Positions 870-6,197 of a DNA stretch of 6,238 nt are shown here, in pieces. The stretch spans positions 1 through 6,238 of the forward strand of contig JACPHL010000182.1 of assembly GCA_016188625.1 (NCBI GenBank). Direction: 5' to 3'. The stretch comes from Candidatus Rokuibacteriota bacterium (lineage in GTDB: Bacteria; Methylomirabilota; Methylomirabilia; Rokubacteriales; JACPHL01). Position 1 is the first letter of the stretch; each line of letters begins with the position of its first letter. Below the pieces are notes generated by a model. It was not told the DNA's origin and ran no database searches. It worked only from the letters and a program-made list of their open reading frames with translations. Position numbers and translations under genes: made by a program.

Positions 870-2383
870 ATGGGCCGCTGCCTTCCCCGGCTCGCGCTCG
901 TCTGGCTCCTCCTGGCGCTCCCGGCCCCCCTGGCGGCCGAGACGCTGCTCCTCGAGGTCCGCTCGACGGGAGGCTCGCCGCGTCCCCGACAGCCCCGCAG
1001 GCGACCCTCACGGTGGCGGGCCGGACCGCCATCGTGTTCCGTGACAGCCCGGAGATCCTCGCCGCCGGCCGCCAGGTCCGGCTGGGCGCCGCTGCCCGCC
1101 TGCGCAACGGGGAGTGGGAGGTGCCGGGCGAGTTTCTGGTCCGGGCGCTCCCGGCCCTGATCGGGCGCGGCGTCCACGTCGCGGTGACCCCCGCGCCCCC
1201 GCCGGGTCCACCCCCCAAGGCGGGTGGGACCGTCGTCACCAAGTCCCCCGGGCCCGCTCAGCCCCCGGCCAAGCTCGCCTCCGTCCAGCGACCGGACCCC
1301 GCGCCCCCGCCGGCCCTTCCGCGGGGTGGGATCCGTCTCCTCGACCTCCGCTACCGCTCCTACCCCACCTACACCCGGGTCGTCCTCGAAGGGAGCGCGC
1401 CGTTCGAGCCGCTCCTGGTCGAGGCGCCGGGAAGCCTCCTGGTGCGCCTCCCCGGCCTGGCGGTCGCCCCTGATCCGGCGCCCCGGCCGATCGGGGACGG
1501 ACTGGTCGCCGACCTCGGCTTCGTCGAGGATCGGGGGCTGCCCGGGCTCAGGATCCGGTTCGAGAACCCTCCGGGCTCGCGGAAGGTCTTCCGGCTCGAG
1601 GAGCCCTACCGGCTCGTCCTCGACCTCTACCGCCCGCCCGCCCCGCGCCCCCCGTCGGCGACCCCGGGCGCGGCGCCGCCCGTCCACATCGTCCTGGACC
1701 CCGGTCACGGCGGCCACGACCCCGGGGCCATCGGGCCCGGGGGACTCAAGGAGAAGGAGCTGGTCCTGGACGTCGCCAGGCGCCCGGCGGCCTTCCTCGA
1801 AGAGGGGCTGGGGGCCAAGGTCACGCTGACGCGGACCCGCGACGAGTTCGTGCCGCTTCGGGAGCGGACCGCCCTGGCCAATCGCCTGCGCGCCGATCTC
1901 TTCGTCTCGATCCACGCCAACGCCGCCCGGCACAGCGCGGCGGCGGGCGCCGAGACCTACTTCCTCTCCTCGGAGGCGACCGACAAGGAGGCGCGGGCGG
2001 TGGCGGCCTTCGAGAACAAGGTCATCGAGCTCGAGCCGGGGGGCCCGGCGGCCCGCCGGGACCTCCTCAAGACGATCCTCTGGGACCTGGCCCAGTCGGA
2101 GTTCCAGGACGAGTCGAGCCGGCTCGCCGAGAGCCTCCAGGACGCCCTCGAGCAGGCCCTCCGCACCCCCAACCGCGGGGTCAAGCAGGCCCCCTTCTAC
2201 GTCCTCGGGGGCGCCGCCATGCCCGCGGTCCTGGTCGAGATCGGCTTCCTGACCCACCGCGAGGAGGAGCGGAAGCTCCGCGACGAGGGGTACCGGGAGC
2301 GGCTCGCCCGGGCCCTCTACGCGGGGGTGGCGGCCCACAAGGACCGCTACGACAGGAAGCTCGGCGTCGTCACCCGGCAATGA
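870..2383 (+). CDS. Exported N-acetylmuramoyl-L-alanine amidase (AMIN + Amidase_3), with an apparent -1 frameshift near 962
   Basis: This periplasmic zinc amidase cleaves the bond between N-acetylmuramic acid and L-alanine in peptidoglycan and is typically used in cell separation. ATG at 870 has GGAGG five bases upstream and begins a signal peptide ([12 protein letters not shown], then a Leu/Ala core ending PLAA before ETLLLEV). That frame soon becomes nonsense, while the mature protein continues in the frame whose codons start at 962. Reading C962 twice gives a smooth join (LEVR-LDGRLA) and a product of about 504 residues. In composite numbering, residues 36-108 are an N-terminal domain, 108-152 a proline-rich linker, 153-258 an AMIN domain (septum or peptidoglycan targeting), and 273-492 Amidase_3. 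Zinc ligands are H280 (DPGHGG), E295 (KEKEL) and H349 (SIHAN); the catalytic Glu is E457 (VEIGF). The stop overlaps the rph start (ATGA). The shift could be a sequencing or assembly error, a real mutation, or less likely programmed, since no slippery heptamer is visible. Confidence 0.9.
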
Positions 2384-3123
2384 TCCGTCGCGACGGCCGC
2401 ACCCCCCGGCAGCTCCGTCCGGTCCGCCTGACCCGGGACTTCATCCCGCACGCCGAGGGCTCGATCCTCGTGGAGGTGGGGGACACCCGGGTCATCTGCA
2501 CCGCCTCGGTCGAGGAGCGCGTGCCGGGCTTCCTCAGGGGGCTCGGCCAGGGGTGGGTCACGGCGGAGTACGCGATGCTCCCCCGCGCGACCCTGGTCCG
2601 CACCCCGCGGGAGACCGGCCGGACCGGCGGGCGGACCCAGGAGATCCAGCGGCTGGTCGGCCGCTCCCTCAGGAGCGTGGTCGATCTCCCCAGGCTGGGG
2701 GAGCGCACCGTCACCATCGACTGCGACGTGATCCAGGCCGACGGCGGGACCCGCACCGCCTCCATCACCGGCGGGTTCGTGGCGCTGGCCGACTGCCTCG
2801 CCAGGCTGAAGGCCGGCGGCCAGCTCGCCCAGGACCCGCTGAAGGACTTCGTGGCCGCGACCAGCGTCGGGGTGGTGGGCGGCGGGGTGGTCCTCGATCT
2901 GGCCTACGTGGAGGACTCCACGGCCGAGGTGGACATGAACGTGGTGATGACCGGGAGCGGCCGCTACGTCGAGATCCAGGGGACCGCGGAGCAGACCCCC
3001 TTCGCCCAGGAGATCCTGCTCGCGATGCTCGCCGTGGCCGAGGAGGGGATCCGGCAGCTGATCGGCCTCCAGCGGCGGGCCCTCGCCGACCGGAGCGGGA
3101 CCGCCTTCACCCTGCCGGCTTGA
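2380..3123 (+). CDS. rph: Ribonuclease PH
   Basis: RNase PH is a phosphorolytic 3'-to-5' exoribonuclease that trims tRNA 3' extensions and participates in structured-RNA turnover. It forms a hexameric ring in the cytoplasm. The 247-residue product has normal family length and is complete. The phosphate-site and active-site landmarks are present: [19 protein letters not shown] (residues 80-98, with R85), [13 protein letters not shown] (120-132, with T124 and R125), and [12 protein letters not shown] (176-187, with D179 and D185 at the metal/catalytic aspartate positions). ATG at 2380 overlaps the amidase stop by four bases (ATGA), which implies translational coupling and a shared transcript. 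No separate promoter is visible. Its stop codon lies inside the -35 box of the tRNA-Pro promoter that follows, so the enzyme sits next to one of its likely substrate classes. The rdgB/Ham1 gene that often follows rph in related gene orders is absent. Confidence 0.97.
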
Positions 3124-3150
3124 CGCCCCCGGGGGAGCGGGGGCTATACT
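3120..3150 (+). promoter_or_regulatory. tRNA-Pro promoter overlapping the rph stop codon
   Basis: TTGACG (3120-3125), a 19-bp spacer and TATACT (3145-3150) place transcription start near 3157, seven bases before the mature tRNA. The TGA of the -35 box is the rph stop codon. The long spacer is the only weak point. Confidence 0.65.
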
Positions 3151-3163
3151 GGATCACCTCCGA

Positions 3164-3240
<77 letters not shown>

Positions 3241-3248
3241 TCTCCTTC

Positions 3249-3278
3249 GGGTGGCCCTCGCCGCTCGCTCCGCCACCC
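3249..3278 (+). terminator. Hairpin after tRNA-Pro, possible terminator
   Basis: GGGTGGC (3249-3255) and GCCACCC (3272-3278) form a perfect 7-bp stem with a 16-base loop, starting nine bases after the tRNA CCA. No T-run follows, so intrinsic termination is uncertain. Position between convergent units is the main support. Confidence 0.35.
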
Positions 3279-3288
3279 ATGCCGACAC

Positions 3289-3318
3289 CTCCCCGGCGCC
3301 CGCCCGCGCCCCGGGGAG
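3289..3318. terminator. Inverted repeat between convergent tRNA-Pro and FKBP, possible bidirectional terminator
   Basis: CTCCCCGG (3289-3296) and CCGGGGAG (3311-3318) form a perfect 8-bp stem with a 14-base GC-rich loop, ending six bases beyond the FKBP stop codon on the minus strand. It could end both convergent transcripts. There is no T-tract on either strand. Confidence 0.4.
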
Positions 3319-3324
3319 CGGTGG

Positions 3325-3846
3325 CTACTTCGCGGTGGGGGGCTCCACCTCGATGATCTCGACGTCGAAGCGAAGGGTCTTGCCGGCCAGGGGGTGGTTC
3401 AGGTCCAGGACGACGGTGGCCTCGCGGATCTCCTTGATCTTCACCGGCACGGTGGCCCCCGTCCCGGTCGTCGCCAGGAGCTGGGCCCCAACGGTCAGGG
3501 TGTCGGGCGGGATCTGCTCCTTGGGCACCTCGACCTCGGCGGCCGGGTCCACGGGGCCGAAGCCGTCTTCGGGCGGCACTGTGACGTGCTTCGTCTCGCC
3601 GGCTCGCATCCCCGCGATGGCCTTCTCCAGGCCGGGGAGGATCTGCCCCTGGCCGTGGACGTAGGTGAACGGCTTCCCCTGGGTCGAGGTGAGCACCTCC
3701 CCCGCGTCGTCCTTCATGACGTACTCGAACTTGACCGCGGAGCCGTTCTCGACGGCCGGGCCCGGGGGGCTTCCCTGCTGGGCCTGCGCGACGCCGAGCA
3801 CCAGCAGGAGCAGCACGGGAAGCGTCATCGCCCCCAATCTCTTCAC
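3325..3846 (-). CDS. Exported FKBP-type peptidyl-prolyl cis-trans isomerase, SlyD-like
   Basis: This prolyl isomerase/chaperone catalyses cis-trans isomerisation of X-Pro bonds, here probably in the periplasm. I chose the GTG at 3844-3846 (173 residues): GGGAGG lies five bases upstream, and it gives a signal peptide with a basic start (MKRLGAM), a Leu/Val core and an AQA cleavage site near residue 22. A longer frame reaches 3921 but has no signal-peptide logic and overlaps the promoter. The FKBP fold runs from about residue 36 to 168: FEYVMKDDAGEVLTST, then FTYVHGQGQILPGLEKAI (60-77), then VPPEDGFGPVDP. The SlyD-type insert-in-flap region and its signature LDLNHPLAGKTLRFDVEI (147-164) follow. 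It lacks the His-rich metal-binding tail of enterobacterial SlyD. It converges with tRNA-Pro and diverges from tRNA-Arg. The family is certain; periplasmic location is inferred from the signal peptide. Confidence 0.94.
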   Translation of the reverse strand: MKRLGAMTLPVLLLLVLGVAQAQQGSPPGPAVENGSAVKFEYVMKDDAGEVLTSTQGKPFTYVHGQGQILPGLEKAIAGMRAGETKHVTVPPEDGFGPVDPAAEVEVPKEQIPPDTLTVGAQLLATTGTGATVPVKIKEIREATVVLDLNHPLAGKTLRFDVEIIEVEPPTAK

Positions 3847-3892
3847 GGCAGCCTCCCATCCGCCCTCGAGGGGCTGGTCGGATATGCGGGTG

Positions 3893-3921
3893 AGTCTACA
3901 CCCTGCGGGGGCTCGACGCAA
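3893..3921 (-). promoter_or_regulatory. Likely sigma-70 promoter of the FKBP gene
   Basis: Read on the minus strand, TTGCGT (3916-3921), a 17-bp spacer and TAGACT (3893-3898) predict transcription start near 3886. This gives a leader of about 40 bases before the GTG start. The -35 box is only a partial match. Confidence 0.45.
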
Positions 3922-3990
3922 TCCGGGTTCGGGCGGGGCGCGAACGGGAGGCCGGCGGCCGAGGGATGGCGCCCCGCGGCCCGGGGAGTG

Positions 3991-3996
3991 TAGAAT
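3991..3996 (+). promoter_or_regulatory. Probable -10 box of tRNA-Arg
   Basis: TAGAAT lies 11 bases before the mature tRNA-Arg 5' end, in otherwise very GC-rich sequence. No convincing -35 hexamer lies 16-19 bases upstream. Confidence 0.4.
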
Positions 3997-4007
3997 CTCT
4001 GCAGCGG

Positions 4008-4083
4008 GCGCCTGTAGCTCAGCGGACAGAGCAACGGACTTCTAATCCGTGGGTCAGAGGTTCGAATCCTCTCAGGCGCGCCA
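4008..4083 (+). tRNA. trnR: tRNA-Arg, anticodon UCU
   Basis: This is a 76-nt cloverleaf with a perfect acceptor stem, GCGCCTG (4008-4014) with CAGGCGC (4073-4079), discriminator G4080 and an encoded CCA at 4081-4083. The anticodon stem ACGGA/TCCGT closes the loop CTTCTAA, with anticodon TCT at 4041-4043. The T arm AGAGG-TTCGAAT-CCTCT is perfect. It reads AGA/AGG arginine codons, which should be rare in a genome this GC-rich. It is divergent from the FKBP gene and convergent with the DUF4410-like lipoprotein gene. Confidence 0.97.
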
Positions 4084-4164
4084 GCAACCACGCCCATTCC
4101 TACCGCCAGGCCCTCGGCGCCCTTCACCGGTCGTCCCATGAGCGGCGCCCTTCCCGGCACCTCC

Positions 4165-4680
4165 TCAGGGTTTCCCCGGCTCCACGACGCCCTTGATGTA
4201 CTTGACGATCTCTTCCCCGTGTCGGCGGGCCACGCCTTCCATGCTGCTCACGGCGGTGGCGTTGTAGCTCCGGATCACGGATCGGGCCACCGTGCGATCG
4301 GTGCGCGGGTCGGTGAGTTCGACCACGGATTCCAGGTGGTCACTGCCCGCCAAGACTCCGAACATGAACCGGACGACCCCACCCCGATCCCGATACTCTT
4401 TCACGGCCACACGGAGGGCAAGCTGTCTGGCCCGCTCCTGCGTCAATCCCTGCCCTCGCAGTTCCTGCTCGACGAAACTCTTCACCATCTCCACGACATG
4501 GGAGGGGACCTTCTCGTTGGCGGCTGTGACACTGGCCAGATGGATCTGAGCCCCGCCCCCTTGGACGGCCGCCATGTCCACCACCGCGGCCTCCCGCACG
4601 GTGCTGCCGCAGCCCGCGGCCGCCAGGGCCAGGAACGGGAGCAGGACGGTTACCGTCAGGCGTCGTCGCGCGATCGTCAT
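4165..4680 (-). CDS. DUF4410-like predicted lipoprotein
   Basis: The product is a 171-residue predicted lipoprotein of unknown function. ATG at 4678-4680 is preceded by a strong ribosome-binding site, AAAGGAGG, eight bases upstream. The N-terminus has basic residues (ARRR), a hydrophobic core and a lipobox (A21-A22-G23-C24), so it should be lipidated at C24 and membrane-anchored. Gly at +2 favours the outer membrane by Lol-type rules. The body resembles DUF4410-type proteins: a helical segment VEMVKSFVEQELRGQGL, a strand LALRVAVKEYRDRGG, then FMFGVLAGSDHLESVVELTDPRTDRTVARS. This resemblance is recognised by eye and needs a profile search. Upstream on the same strand is a sigma-54-type promoter (4776-4790), giving a leader of about 85 bases. 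The gene diverges from pilZ across a shared regulatory region, so the two may be co-regulated. No enzymatic motif is seen. Confidence 0.85.
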   Translation of the reverse strand: MTIARRRLTVTVLLPFLALAAAGCGSTVREAAVVDMAAVQGGGAQIHLASVTAANEKVPSHVVEMVKSFVEQELRGQGLTQERARQLALRVAVKEYRDRGGVVRFMFGVLAGSDHLESVVELTDPRTDRTVARSVIRSYNATAVSSMEGVARRHGEEIVKYIKGVVEPGKP

Positions 4681-5186: not shown

Positions 5187-5507
5187 ATGGCGGTCATGCT
5201 TCCGGCGACCGGAGAAGAGGCCCGAGATCGGCGCAGGGCCCCGCGCATGGCGGTCGGCCTCCCCGTCGAGTTGGAGCACGGCAAGGGCTGGACGCGCGAC
5301 GTCAGCGCCTCCGGGGTGTACTTCGAGACGGACGCCCCACCCGCGGTCGGGACCCAGGTCCGCTTTGCCCTGCTCTTGCCCTACGGGACGGCCGTGCGGG
5401 TCGAATGCGCGGGCGAGATCGTGCGCGTCGAACGGCACGAGGATCGAGTGGGGGTGGCCGCCACCATCGCCGCCTCGCGGCTGATCCGGGAGGACCTGAT
5501 CGGATGA
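5187..5507 (+). CDS. Single-domain PilZ protein (predicted c-di-GMP receptor)
   Basis: The 106-residue cytosolic protein consists essentially of one PilZ domain, the common bacterial receptor for cyclic di-GMP. Both binding motifs are intact: RxxxR as R16-R17-A18-P19-R20, and DxSxxG as D38-V39-S40-A41-S42-G43. Strands such as GTQVRFALLLP and VRVECAGEIVRVE follow, and the region VGVAATI closes the barrel. ATG at 5187 is chosen because AGGAGGAGGGA directly precedes it and the domain begins soon after; the frame upstream to 4785 is unlike any protein I recognise and contains the promoter. Expression is probably from the sigma-54-type promoter at 5147-5162. A 58-residue membrane protein gene starts 26 bases after the stop and is likely on the same transcript, so PilZ may signal to or through a membrane partner. 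That link is inference from position only. Confidence 0.9.
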   Translation: MAVMLPATGEEARDRRRAPRMAVGLPVELEHGKGWTRDVSASGVYFETDAPPAVGTQVRFALLLPYGTAVRVECAGEIVRVERHEDRVGVAATIAASRLIREDLIG

Positions 5508-5533: not shown

Positions 5534-5710
5534 ATGGTCCCCCTCAGGGTGGTCATCGGCTGGACGGTGTCGGCCTTGCTCCTGTTCCTCAGCTCCACCC
5601 TTCTGTTCTGCTTCGCGCTCCAGGGGATCCTCCAGCCCGATCACTGCCGCCGCCTCCAGGGTCTCTTCTGGAGCGCGGCCCGGCCGCTCCTGAATCTCTT
5701 CGGCCTCTAG
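5534..5710 (+). CDS. 58-residue single-pass membrane microprotein, paralogue of the facing gene
   Basis: This short gene is easily missed. It encodes 58 residues: a basic N-terminus (R5), one strongly hydrophobic helix (about residues 6-33, including SALLLFLSSTLLFCFAL), a segment PDHCRRLQG (35-43) and a C-terminal amphipathic tail ending LFGL. Nearly all codons end in G or C, as expected for a real gene here. An in-frame stop at 5525 leaves ATG 5534 as the first start; GGAGG at 5514-5518 is 15 bases upstream, which is rather far. It follows pilZ by 26 bases and probably shares its sigma-54-type promoter. It aligns end to end without gaps with the 58-residue gene facing it, with 18 identical positions including C26, P35, C38, LQG (41-43) and LFG (55-57). 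No known family is recognised and function is unknown. Confidence 0.7.
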   Translation: MVPLRVVIGWTVSALLLFLSSTLLFCFALQGILQPDHCRRLQGLFWSAARPLLNLFGL

Positions 5711-5735
5711 CCTCGGGCGCCTACCCGCCGAAGAG
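5696..5735. terminator. Inverted repeat formed by the two microprotein 3' ends, possible bidirectional terminator
   Basis: CTCTTCGGC (5696-5704) and GCCGAAGAG (5727-5735) form a perfect 9-bp stem with a 22-base loop that contains both stop codons. The arms are the codons for the conserved L-F-G of the two facing genes. It may terminate both transcripts, though there is no T-tract. The repeat may equally be a by-product of paralogy in inverted orientation. Confidence 0.4.
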
Positions 5736-5897
5736 CTTCTCGACCGACTCGGAGACTTCCACGACGAAGCCCTGGAGGTTGTGGCACATGAATGGCCGGA
5801 CGGCGGGGGCGGTGTAGGAGCAGAGCACCAAGGCCAGGCTCAGGAAGAGCATCGACCACGCGAAGACCCAGAGGCCCGCGAGCCGCAAGCCTCCCAT
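5721..5897 (-). CDS. 58-residue single-pass membrane microprotein, second paralogue
   Basis: The product has 58 residues: N-terminal R5, one hydrophobic helix (about residues 6-33, including WSMLFLSLALVLCSYTA), the segment RPFMCHNLQG (34-43) and an acidic amphipathic tail VEVSESVEKLFGG. ATG at 5895-5897 has GGAGG (5907-5911) nine bases upstream. A near-consensus promoter, TTGACA-N17-TACACT, lies on the same strand at 5972-6000, so expression has strong sequence support. The stop is 10 bases from the stop of the facing paralogue. C26 and C38 are conserved between the two, each with a histidine beside C38 (C38-H39 here, H37-C38 in the partner). This suggests metal, redox or disulfide chemistry, but that is speculation. 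No known family is recognised. Unlike its partner, it appears to be driven by the housekeeping sigma factor. Confidence 0.75.
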   Translation of the reverse strand: MGGLRLAGLWVFAWSMLFLSLALVLCSYTAPAVRPFMCHNLQGFVVEVSESVEKLFGG

Positions 5898-5971
5898 GCT
5901 AGTTCGCCTCCACGGAGAGATCCTCCACCCTGCGCGGTCGGGGCTGCCTGCCGGGCGCGACAGTTGAGCGG

Positions 5972-6000
5972 AGTGTAGGCGGGATCGGGCTGGCTGTCAA
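5972..6000 (-). promoter_or_regulatory. Near-consensus sigma-70 promoter of the minus-strand microprotein gene
   Basis: On the minus strand, TTGACA (5995-6000, perfect), a 17-bp spacer and TACACT (5972-5977) predict transcription start near 5965 and a leader of about 68 bases. The match is as good as that of the tRNA-His promoter in this window. Confidence 0.75.
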
Positions 6001-6075: not shown

Positions 6076-6104
6076 TTGACAGGGGAGAACCCCTTTCGTA
6101 AGAT
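6076..6104 (+). promoter_or_regulatory. tRNA-His promoter
   Basis: TTGACA (6076-6081), a 17-bp spacer and TAAGAT (6099-6104) put transcription start near 6111, about ten bases before the tRNA. It diverges from the microprotein promoter 75 bp away. Confidence 0.75.
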
Positions 6105-6120: not shown

Positions 6121-6197
6121 GGTGAGCGTAGCTCAACGGTTAGAGCACTGGACTGTGGCTCCAGGGGTTGAGGGTTCGAATCCCTTCGCTCACCCCA
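6121..6197 (+). tRNA. trnH: tRNA-His, anticodon GUG, with encoded G-1
   Basis: The acceptor stem GTGAGCG (6122-6128) pairs perfectly with CGCTCAC (6187-6193). G6121 is the histidine-specific G-1, opposite discriminator C6194, and CCA is encoded at 6195-6197. The anticodon stem CTGGA/TCCAG closes the loop CTGTGGC, with anticodon GTG at 6155-6157. The T arm contains TTCGAAT. It has its own strong promoter and is the last feature before the window ends in GC-rich sequence. Confidence 0.97.

What the first reader, a model, noticed from the sequence alone, without database searches (positions are those of the whole stretch)
5534..5897. Inverted pair of paralogous 58-residue membrane microproteins
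Two short genes, 5534-5710 on plus and 5721-5897 on minus, converge with 10 bp between their stops. Both encode exactly 58 residues. They align without gaps with 18 identical positions: M1, L4, R5, W10, LFLS 17-20, L23, C26, P35, C38, LQG 41-43 and LFG 55-57. Each has one transmembrane helix, a conserved Cys at its end, a second Cys with an adjacent His, and an amphipathic tail. GC3 is very high in both. I recognise no known family. An inverted duplicate that keeps its length and key residues argues for real, selected small proteins, possibly partners.
Basis: partly seen in the sequence, partly recalled or inferred. Interest (0 to 1): 0.78.

Follow-up and report, generated by a model that had tools for sequence, protein, structure and literature searches.

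The report
Paired two-cysteine membrane microprotein family

Summary
ORF A (5534-5710, +) and ORF B (5721-5897, -) each encode 58 residues and share 18 identities without gaps, far beyond chance. They are real, related genes: the same genome has two more A genes, two more B genes and an outlier (C318), and one other genome of the order (G039) has one A and one B. W10, L23, C26 and C38 are invariant in all nine; LQG and LFG are not. dN is below dS wherever both could be estimated.

The 'inverted duplicate' reading fails. A and B are two old subfamilies that split before the two genomes did, and their relative orientation differs between loci. A and B nevertheless share a contig every time, and all three B genes of this genome lie within 225 bp of a tRNA gene. 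The pilZ link does not recur.

No Pfam, NCBIfam, PADLOC, PDB, phage, plasmid or IMG/VR relative was found; 93 of 95 phylum genomes lack convincing members. Best reading: a lineage-restricted pair of small membrane proteins (transmembrane helix, two-cysteine turn, amphipathic helix) that probably act together; the biochemical role is inference. Main rival: a membrane-active, toxin-like peptide.

The parts
5534..5710 (+). ORF A, 58 aa: helix 4-29 (transmembrane), turn with C26 and C38 at its two ends, amphipathic helix 35-55
   Evidence: homologues G000:C64:31072-31245, G000:C243:1217-1384, G039:C119:617-793
5721..5897 (-). ORF B, 58 aa, paralogous subfamily: helix 4-28, C26 and C38, helix 34-56
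   Evidence: homologues G000:C64:14855-15028, G000:C243:932-1096, G039:C119:7877-8059
5972..6000 (-). sigma-70-like promoter TTGACA-17-TACACT, 74 bp upstream of ORF B
   Evidence: 10 of 12 matches; mean 0.0 such sites in shuffles of the region
5907..5911 (-). Shine-Dalgarno-like GGAGG, 9 nt before the ORF B start (read by eye)
   Evidence: GGAGG-CGAACTAGC-ATG
5187..5507 (+). PilZ-domain gene, 26 bp upstream of ORF A on the same strand; possible operon, at this locus only
   Evidence: PF07238 E=7.7e-11; not near the other family members
6122..6197 (+). tRNA-His(GTG), 225 bp from ORF B; own promoter-like site at 6076-6104

Best explanation
ORFs A and B are members of a lineage-restricted family of small single-pass membrane proteins with two ancient subfamilies, A and B, kept together because their products act together. 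Each chain is predicted to be a transmembrane helix, a short turn and an amphipathic helix that would lie along the membrane. The two invariant cysteines sit at the end of helix 1 and the start of helix 2, on either side of the turn, where they could form a disulfide or a metal or redox site (inferred). The likeliest mode of action is an A-B hetero-oligomer that alters the membrane or modulates a membrane complex (inferred). Shown: homology, purifying selection, invariant cysteines, the A/B split, genomic linkage. Not shown: expression, topology, physical pairing, activity.
For: Nine related ORFs in two genomes, all open over the matched stretch. dN below dS in 11 of 12 NG86 comparisons (the twelfth gave no dS) and in all ML ones; codon position 2 is highest or tied in 11 of 12 pairs. 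W10, L23, C26 and C38 invariant in nine. A-versus-B branch 95/94. A and B share a contig in all four cases (three in G000, one in G039); three B genes landing one on each A contig has chance about 5e-7 under uniform placement. AlphaFold2 gives helix-turn-helix for both, mean pLDDT 76 and 80. A strong promoter-like site and a Shine-Dalgarno-like site precede B.
Against: On C64 A and B are 16 kb apart, and in G039 7 kb apart with transposases between, so they are not always one unit. C318 appears unpaired on its 7.6 kb contig. B of C243 lacks an ATG in frame; only a GTG start giving 48 aa, or an indel, explains it. dS is saturated or poorly estimated. No transcript, peptide or topology data; a two-helix model from one or two sequences is weak evidence. 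Charges do not settle the orientation.
Confidence: 0.45

Rival explanations
1. Membrane-active toxin-like peptides: chromosomal paralogues comparable to type I toxins or small holins, kept silent by antisense RNA or used under stress to depolarise the membrane.
For: Small hydrophobic single-pass proteins, many diverged copies in one genome, patchy distribution; a cysteine with a proposed role in oligomerisation is known in some such peptides (PMC7472228); convergent A/B transcripts would overlap here.
Against: No match to Hok, Fst/Ldr or other toxin families in Pfam or NCBIfam at loose cut-offs. No antisense promoter-like site over the A leader. The convergent layout is not conserved at other loci. 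No antitoxin-like gene recurs beside the copies.
Confidence: 0.25
2. Cargo or remnants of mobile elements that insert at tRNA genes; the proteins serve the element, not the host.
For: All three G000 B genes lie 12-225 bp from a tRNA gene; chance for 3 of 5 loci about 1.5e-6 with 29 tRNA genes found in the assembly, computed after seeing the data. G039 copies sit on a contig with DDE-type, IS21-like and IS630-like transposases and Zor-like genes. Only 2 of 60 genomes of the order have the family.
Against: No integrase or other shared gene seen next to the G000 copies; neighbours are ordinary chromosomal genes; position relative to the tRNA differs each time; no phage, plasmid or IMG/VR homologue.
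Confidence: 0.15
3. Accessory subunits: each copy is a small regulator of whichever membrane complex is encoded next to it (RND transporter, PilZ pathway, DUF6627 protein), in the way AcrZ or CydX serve theirs.
For: A of C64 lies upstream of an RND-transporter-like gene on the same strand, A of the window follows pilZ, C318 precedes a DUF6627 gene.
Against: No neighbour recurs; A and B co-locate with each other more than with any third gene.
Confidence: 0.1

Closest known systems
Type I toxin peptides (Hok/Gef, Fst/Ldr)
   Same: Short single-pass membrane proteins with several chromosomal paralogues; some have a functional cysteine (PMC7472228)
   Different: No sequence match at loose cut-offs; here two invariant cysteines and a long second helix; two co-located subfamilies; no antisense RNA evident
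TatA/TatB (architecture only, general knowledge)
   Same: Paired paralogues with one transmembrane helix, a hinge and an amphipathic helix
   Different: No Pfam match to the Tat family, two invariant cysteines, no tatC seen beside them
Small membrane regulators such as AcrZ, CydX, KdpF (general knowledge)
   Same: Size and single transmembrane helix
   Different: Those sit with one fixed partner complex; this family has no recurring neighbour other than itself

Membership tests
Type I toxins (Hok/Gef, Fst/Ldr) | match to the toxin profile | tested here: not met
   no such family up to E = 1 (NCBIfam) or 5 (Pfam)
Type I toxins (Hok/Gef, Fst/Ldr) | antisense RNA antitoxin against the toxin mRNA | tested here: inconclusive
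   no promoter-like site antisense to A; consensus scan only, no RNA data
Type I toxins (Hok/Gef, Fst/Ldr) | growth arrest when overexpressed | not testable with these tools
   needs expression in a laboratory strain
TatA/TatB | Tat profile match | tested here: not met
   no match in Pfam-A at E up to 1 and 5
Phage holins or other phage proteins | PHROGs, phage or viral-contig homologue | tested here: not met
   only one member gave a weak hit (E=0.061) to an uncharacterised PHROG
Paired A/B small membrane protein family defined here | profile match with W10, L23, C26, C38 | tested here: met
   C318 is the outlier, with the Cys spacing two residues shorter

The most novel reading that the evidence does not exclude
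A and B are obligate partners of a new kind of two-subunit membrane device whose cysteine pairs form a switchable disulfide or bind a metal at the A-B interface, duplicated as whole A-B pairs several times in one bacterial lineage.
Probability: 0.15. Interest if true: 0.65.

Novelty: new variant of a known kind. Interest (0 to 1): 0.42.

Why it matters
It is a clean example of a small-protein family that standard annotation would miss, shown to be real by paralogues and selection rather than by database names. The A/B linkage and the invariant cysteine pair make a simple, testable prediction of a two-subunit membrane microprotein, and the tRNA proximity offers a clue to how such genes spread.

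Tried and rejected
A fourth genomic DNA hit (C244) lies inside an apparent transporter binding-protein gene: chance. The only genome contigs match (Demequina, L029) has no small ORF of this shape: rejected. The G070 hit (E=0.001, B profile) and the G340 hit (three stops inside) were set aside as chance. With the nine-row profile no other genome of the order scores better than E=0.0135. PilZ as a general partner: weak PilZ homologues in five other genomes, none with a family hit below E=0.05. Two genome-contig scans gave nothing else; the single-genome and 17-genome outside phyla say little. Paper searches found nothing on this family.

Full report
Observation. The window is contig C319 of a 2.6 Mb, 344-contig assembly, 84% complete. 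ORF A (5534-5710, +) and ORF B (5721-5897, -) are as described. The 18 identities are exact, and shuffling B within its three segments never reached the score in 100,000 trials.

A real family. With the single proteins and then profiles, the same genome yields A genes at C64:31072-31245 and C243:1217-1384, B genes at C64:14855-15028 and C243:932-1096, and an outlier of 57 aa at C318, found at E=5e-4 by a profile that did not contain it. G039, in another family of the order, has one A and one B on contig C119. An A-only profile finds window B at 1.8e-8 and a B-only profile finds A members; hhalign gives E=4.2e-10. The E-values of 1e-19 to 1e-27 come from a profile built with these same rows and are not independent.

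Selection. NG86 gives dN below dS in 11 of 12 within-subfamily pairs and no dS in the twelfth; ML gives dN below dS in all 12. dS is saturated, so no ratio should be quoted. Second codon positions are the most conserved or tied in 11 of 12 pairs. Third positions are 93-95% G or C in the window, as in neighbouring genes. Together with the conserved length this argues for coding genes. B of C243 is the doubtful member: its frame has only a GTG start, leaving 48 aa. In alignment A5 I gave two C243 rows an N-terminus by hand; that end of those rows is not evidence.

Conserved features. W10, L23, C26 and C38 are invariant in nine rows. LQG and LFG are not invariant, and a His beside the second Cys is not conserved. 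Predicted structures are two helices, 4-29 and 35-55 in A, 4-28 and 34-56 in B. A positive residue at positions 3-7 in most members favours a cytoplasmic N-terminus, while a net positive tail in most favours the opposite; orientation is open.

Not an inverted duplicate. On a tree of nine rows one well supported branch parts A from B (95/94), with a G039 member on each side. The split is therefore older than the two genomes' copies, or the pair was carried between lineages. The layout is convergent in the window, tandem B then A on C243, same strand 16 kb apart on C64, and same strand 7 kb apart across transposases in G039.

Linkage and tRNA genes. A and B share a contig each time; in G000 the chance is about 5e-7 for random placement. 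The three B genes lie 225, 12 and 225 bp from a tRNA gene among only 29 found in the assembly, about 1.5e-6 for 3 of 5 loci. Both figures were computed after seeing the pattern and assume uniform placement, which small genes in intergenic stretches do not obey. If whole pairs were duplicated, the linkage would be inherited and the loci not independent.

Neighbours. No third gene recurs: pilZ and tRNA-His here; a trypsin/PDZ protease gene, tRNA-Leu and tRNA-Ala by B of C64; an RND-transporter-like gene and a GNAT gene by A of C64; tRNA-Ser and tRNA-Arg genes on C243; DUF6627 at C318; transposases and Zor-like genes in G039. B of the window has its own strong promoter-like site, divergent from that of tRNA-His.

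Distribution. 93 of 95 phylum genomes have no convincing member, nor do 291 genomes of one other phylum (not all first-look candidates were scored). Phages, plasmids (A only), IMG/VR, PDB, Pfam, NCBIfam and PADLOC are empty, and PHROGs gives one weak hit. Short proteins are hard to detect, so absence elsewhere is provisional; the metagenome collection was not open.

Judgement. A real orphan family of small membrane proteins with two old, co-located branches. Joint action is the best reading of the linkage; a toxin-like or mobile-element role is not excluded.

Noticed in passing
L018 (G039:C119) 2250-4484, minus: ZorB-like (PADLOC E=1.6e-21) and weakly ZorA-like genes among three transposase types, between the B and A members of G039; no further Zorya genes identified.
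   Followed up: partly
L016 3361-3462, minus (G000:C64): A 33-residue ORF with a CPIHG...CPEC zinc-ribbon-like pattern ends 15 bp before A of C64.
   Followed up: no
L015 6757-7029, minus (G000:C64): B of C64 stops 12 bp before tRNA-Leu(CAA) on the same strand; they may be co-transcribed.
   Followed up: no
L017 399-710 and 4344-4537 (G000:C243): Five tRNA genes (four Ser, one Arg) on one 6.9 kb contig, with a deaminase gene resembling tRNA adenosine deaminase.
   Followed up: no
window 4165-4680, minus: DUF4410 lipoprotein-like gene between tRNA-Arg and pilZ.
   Followed up: no
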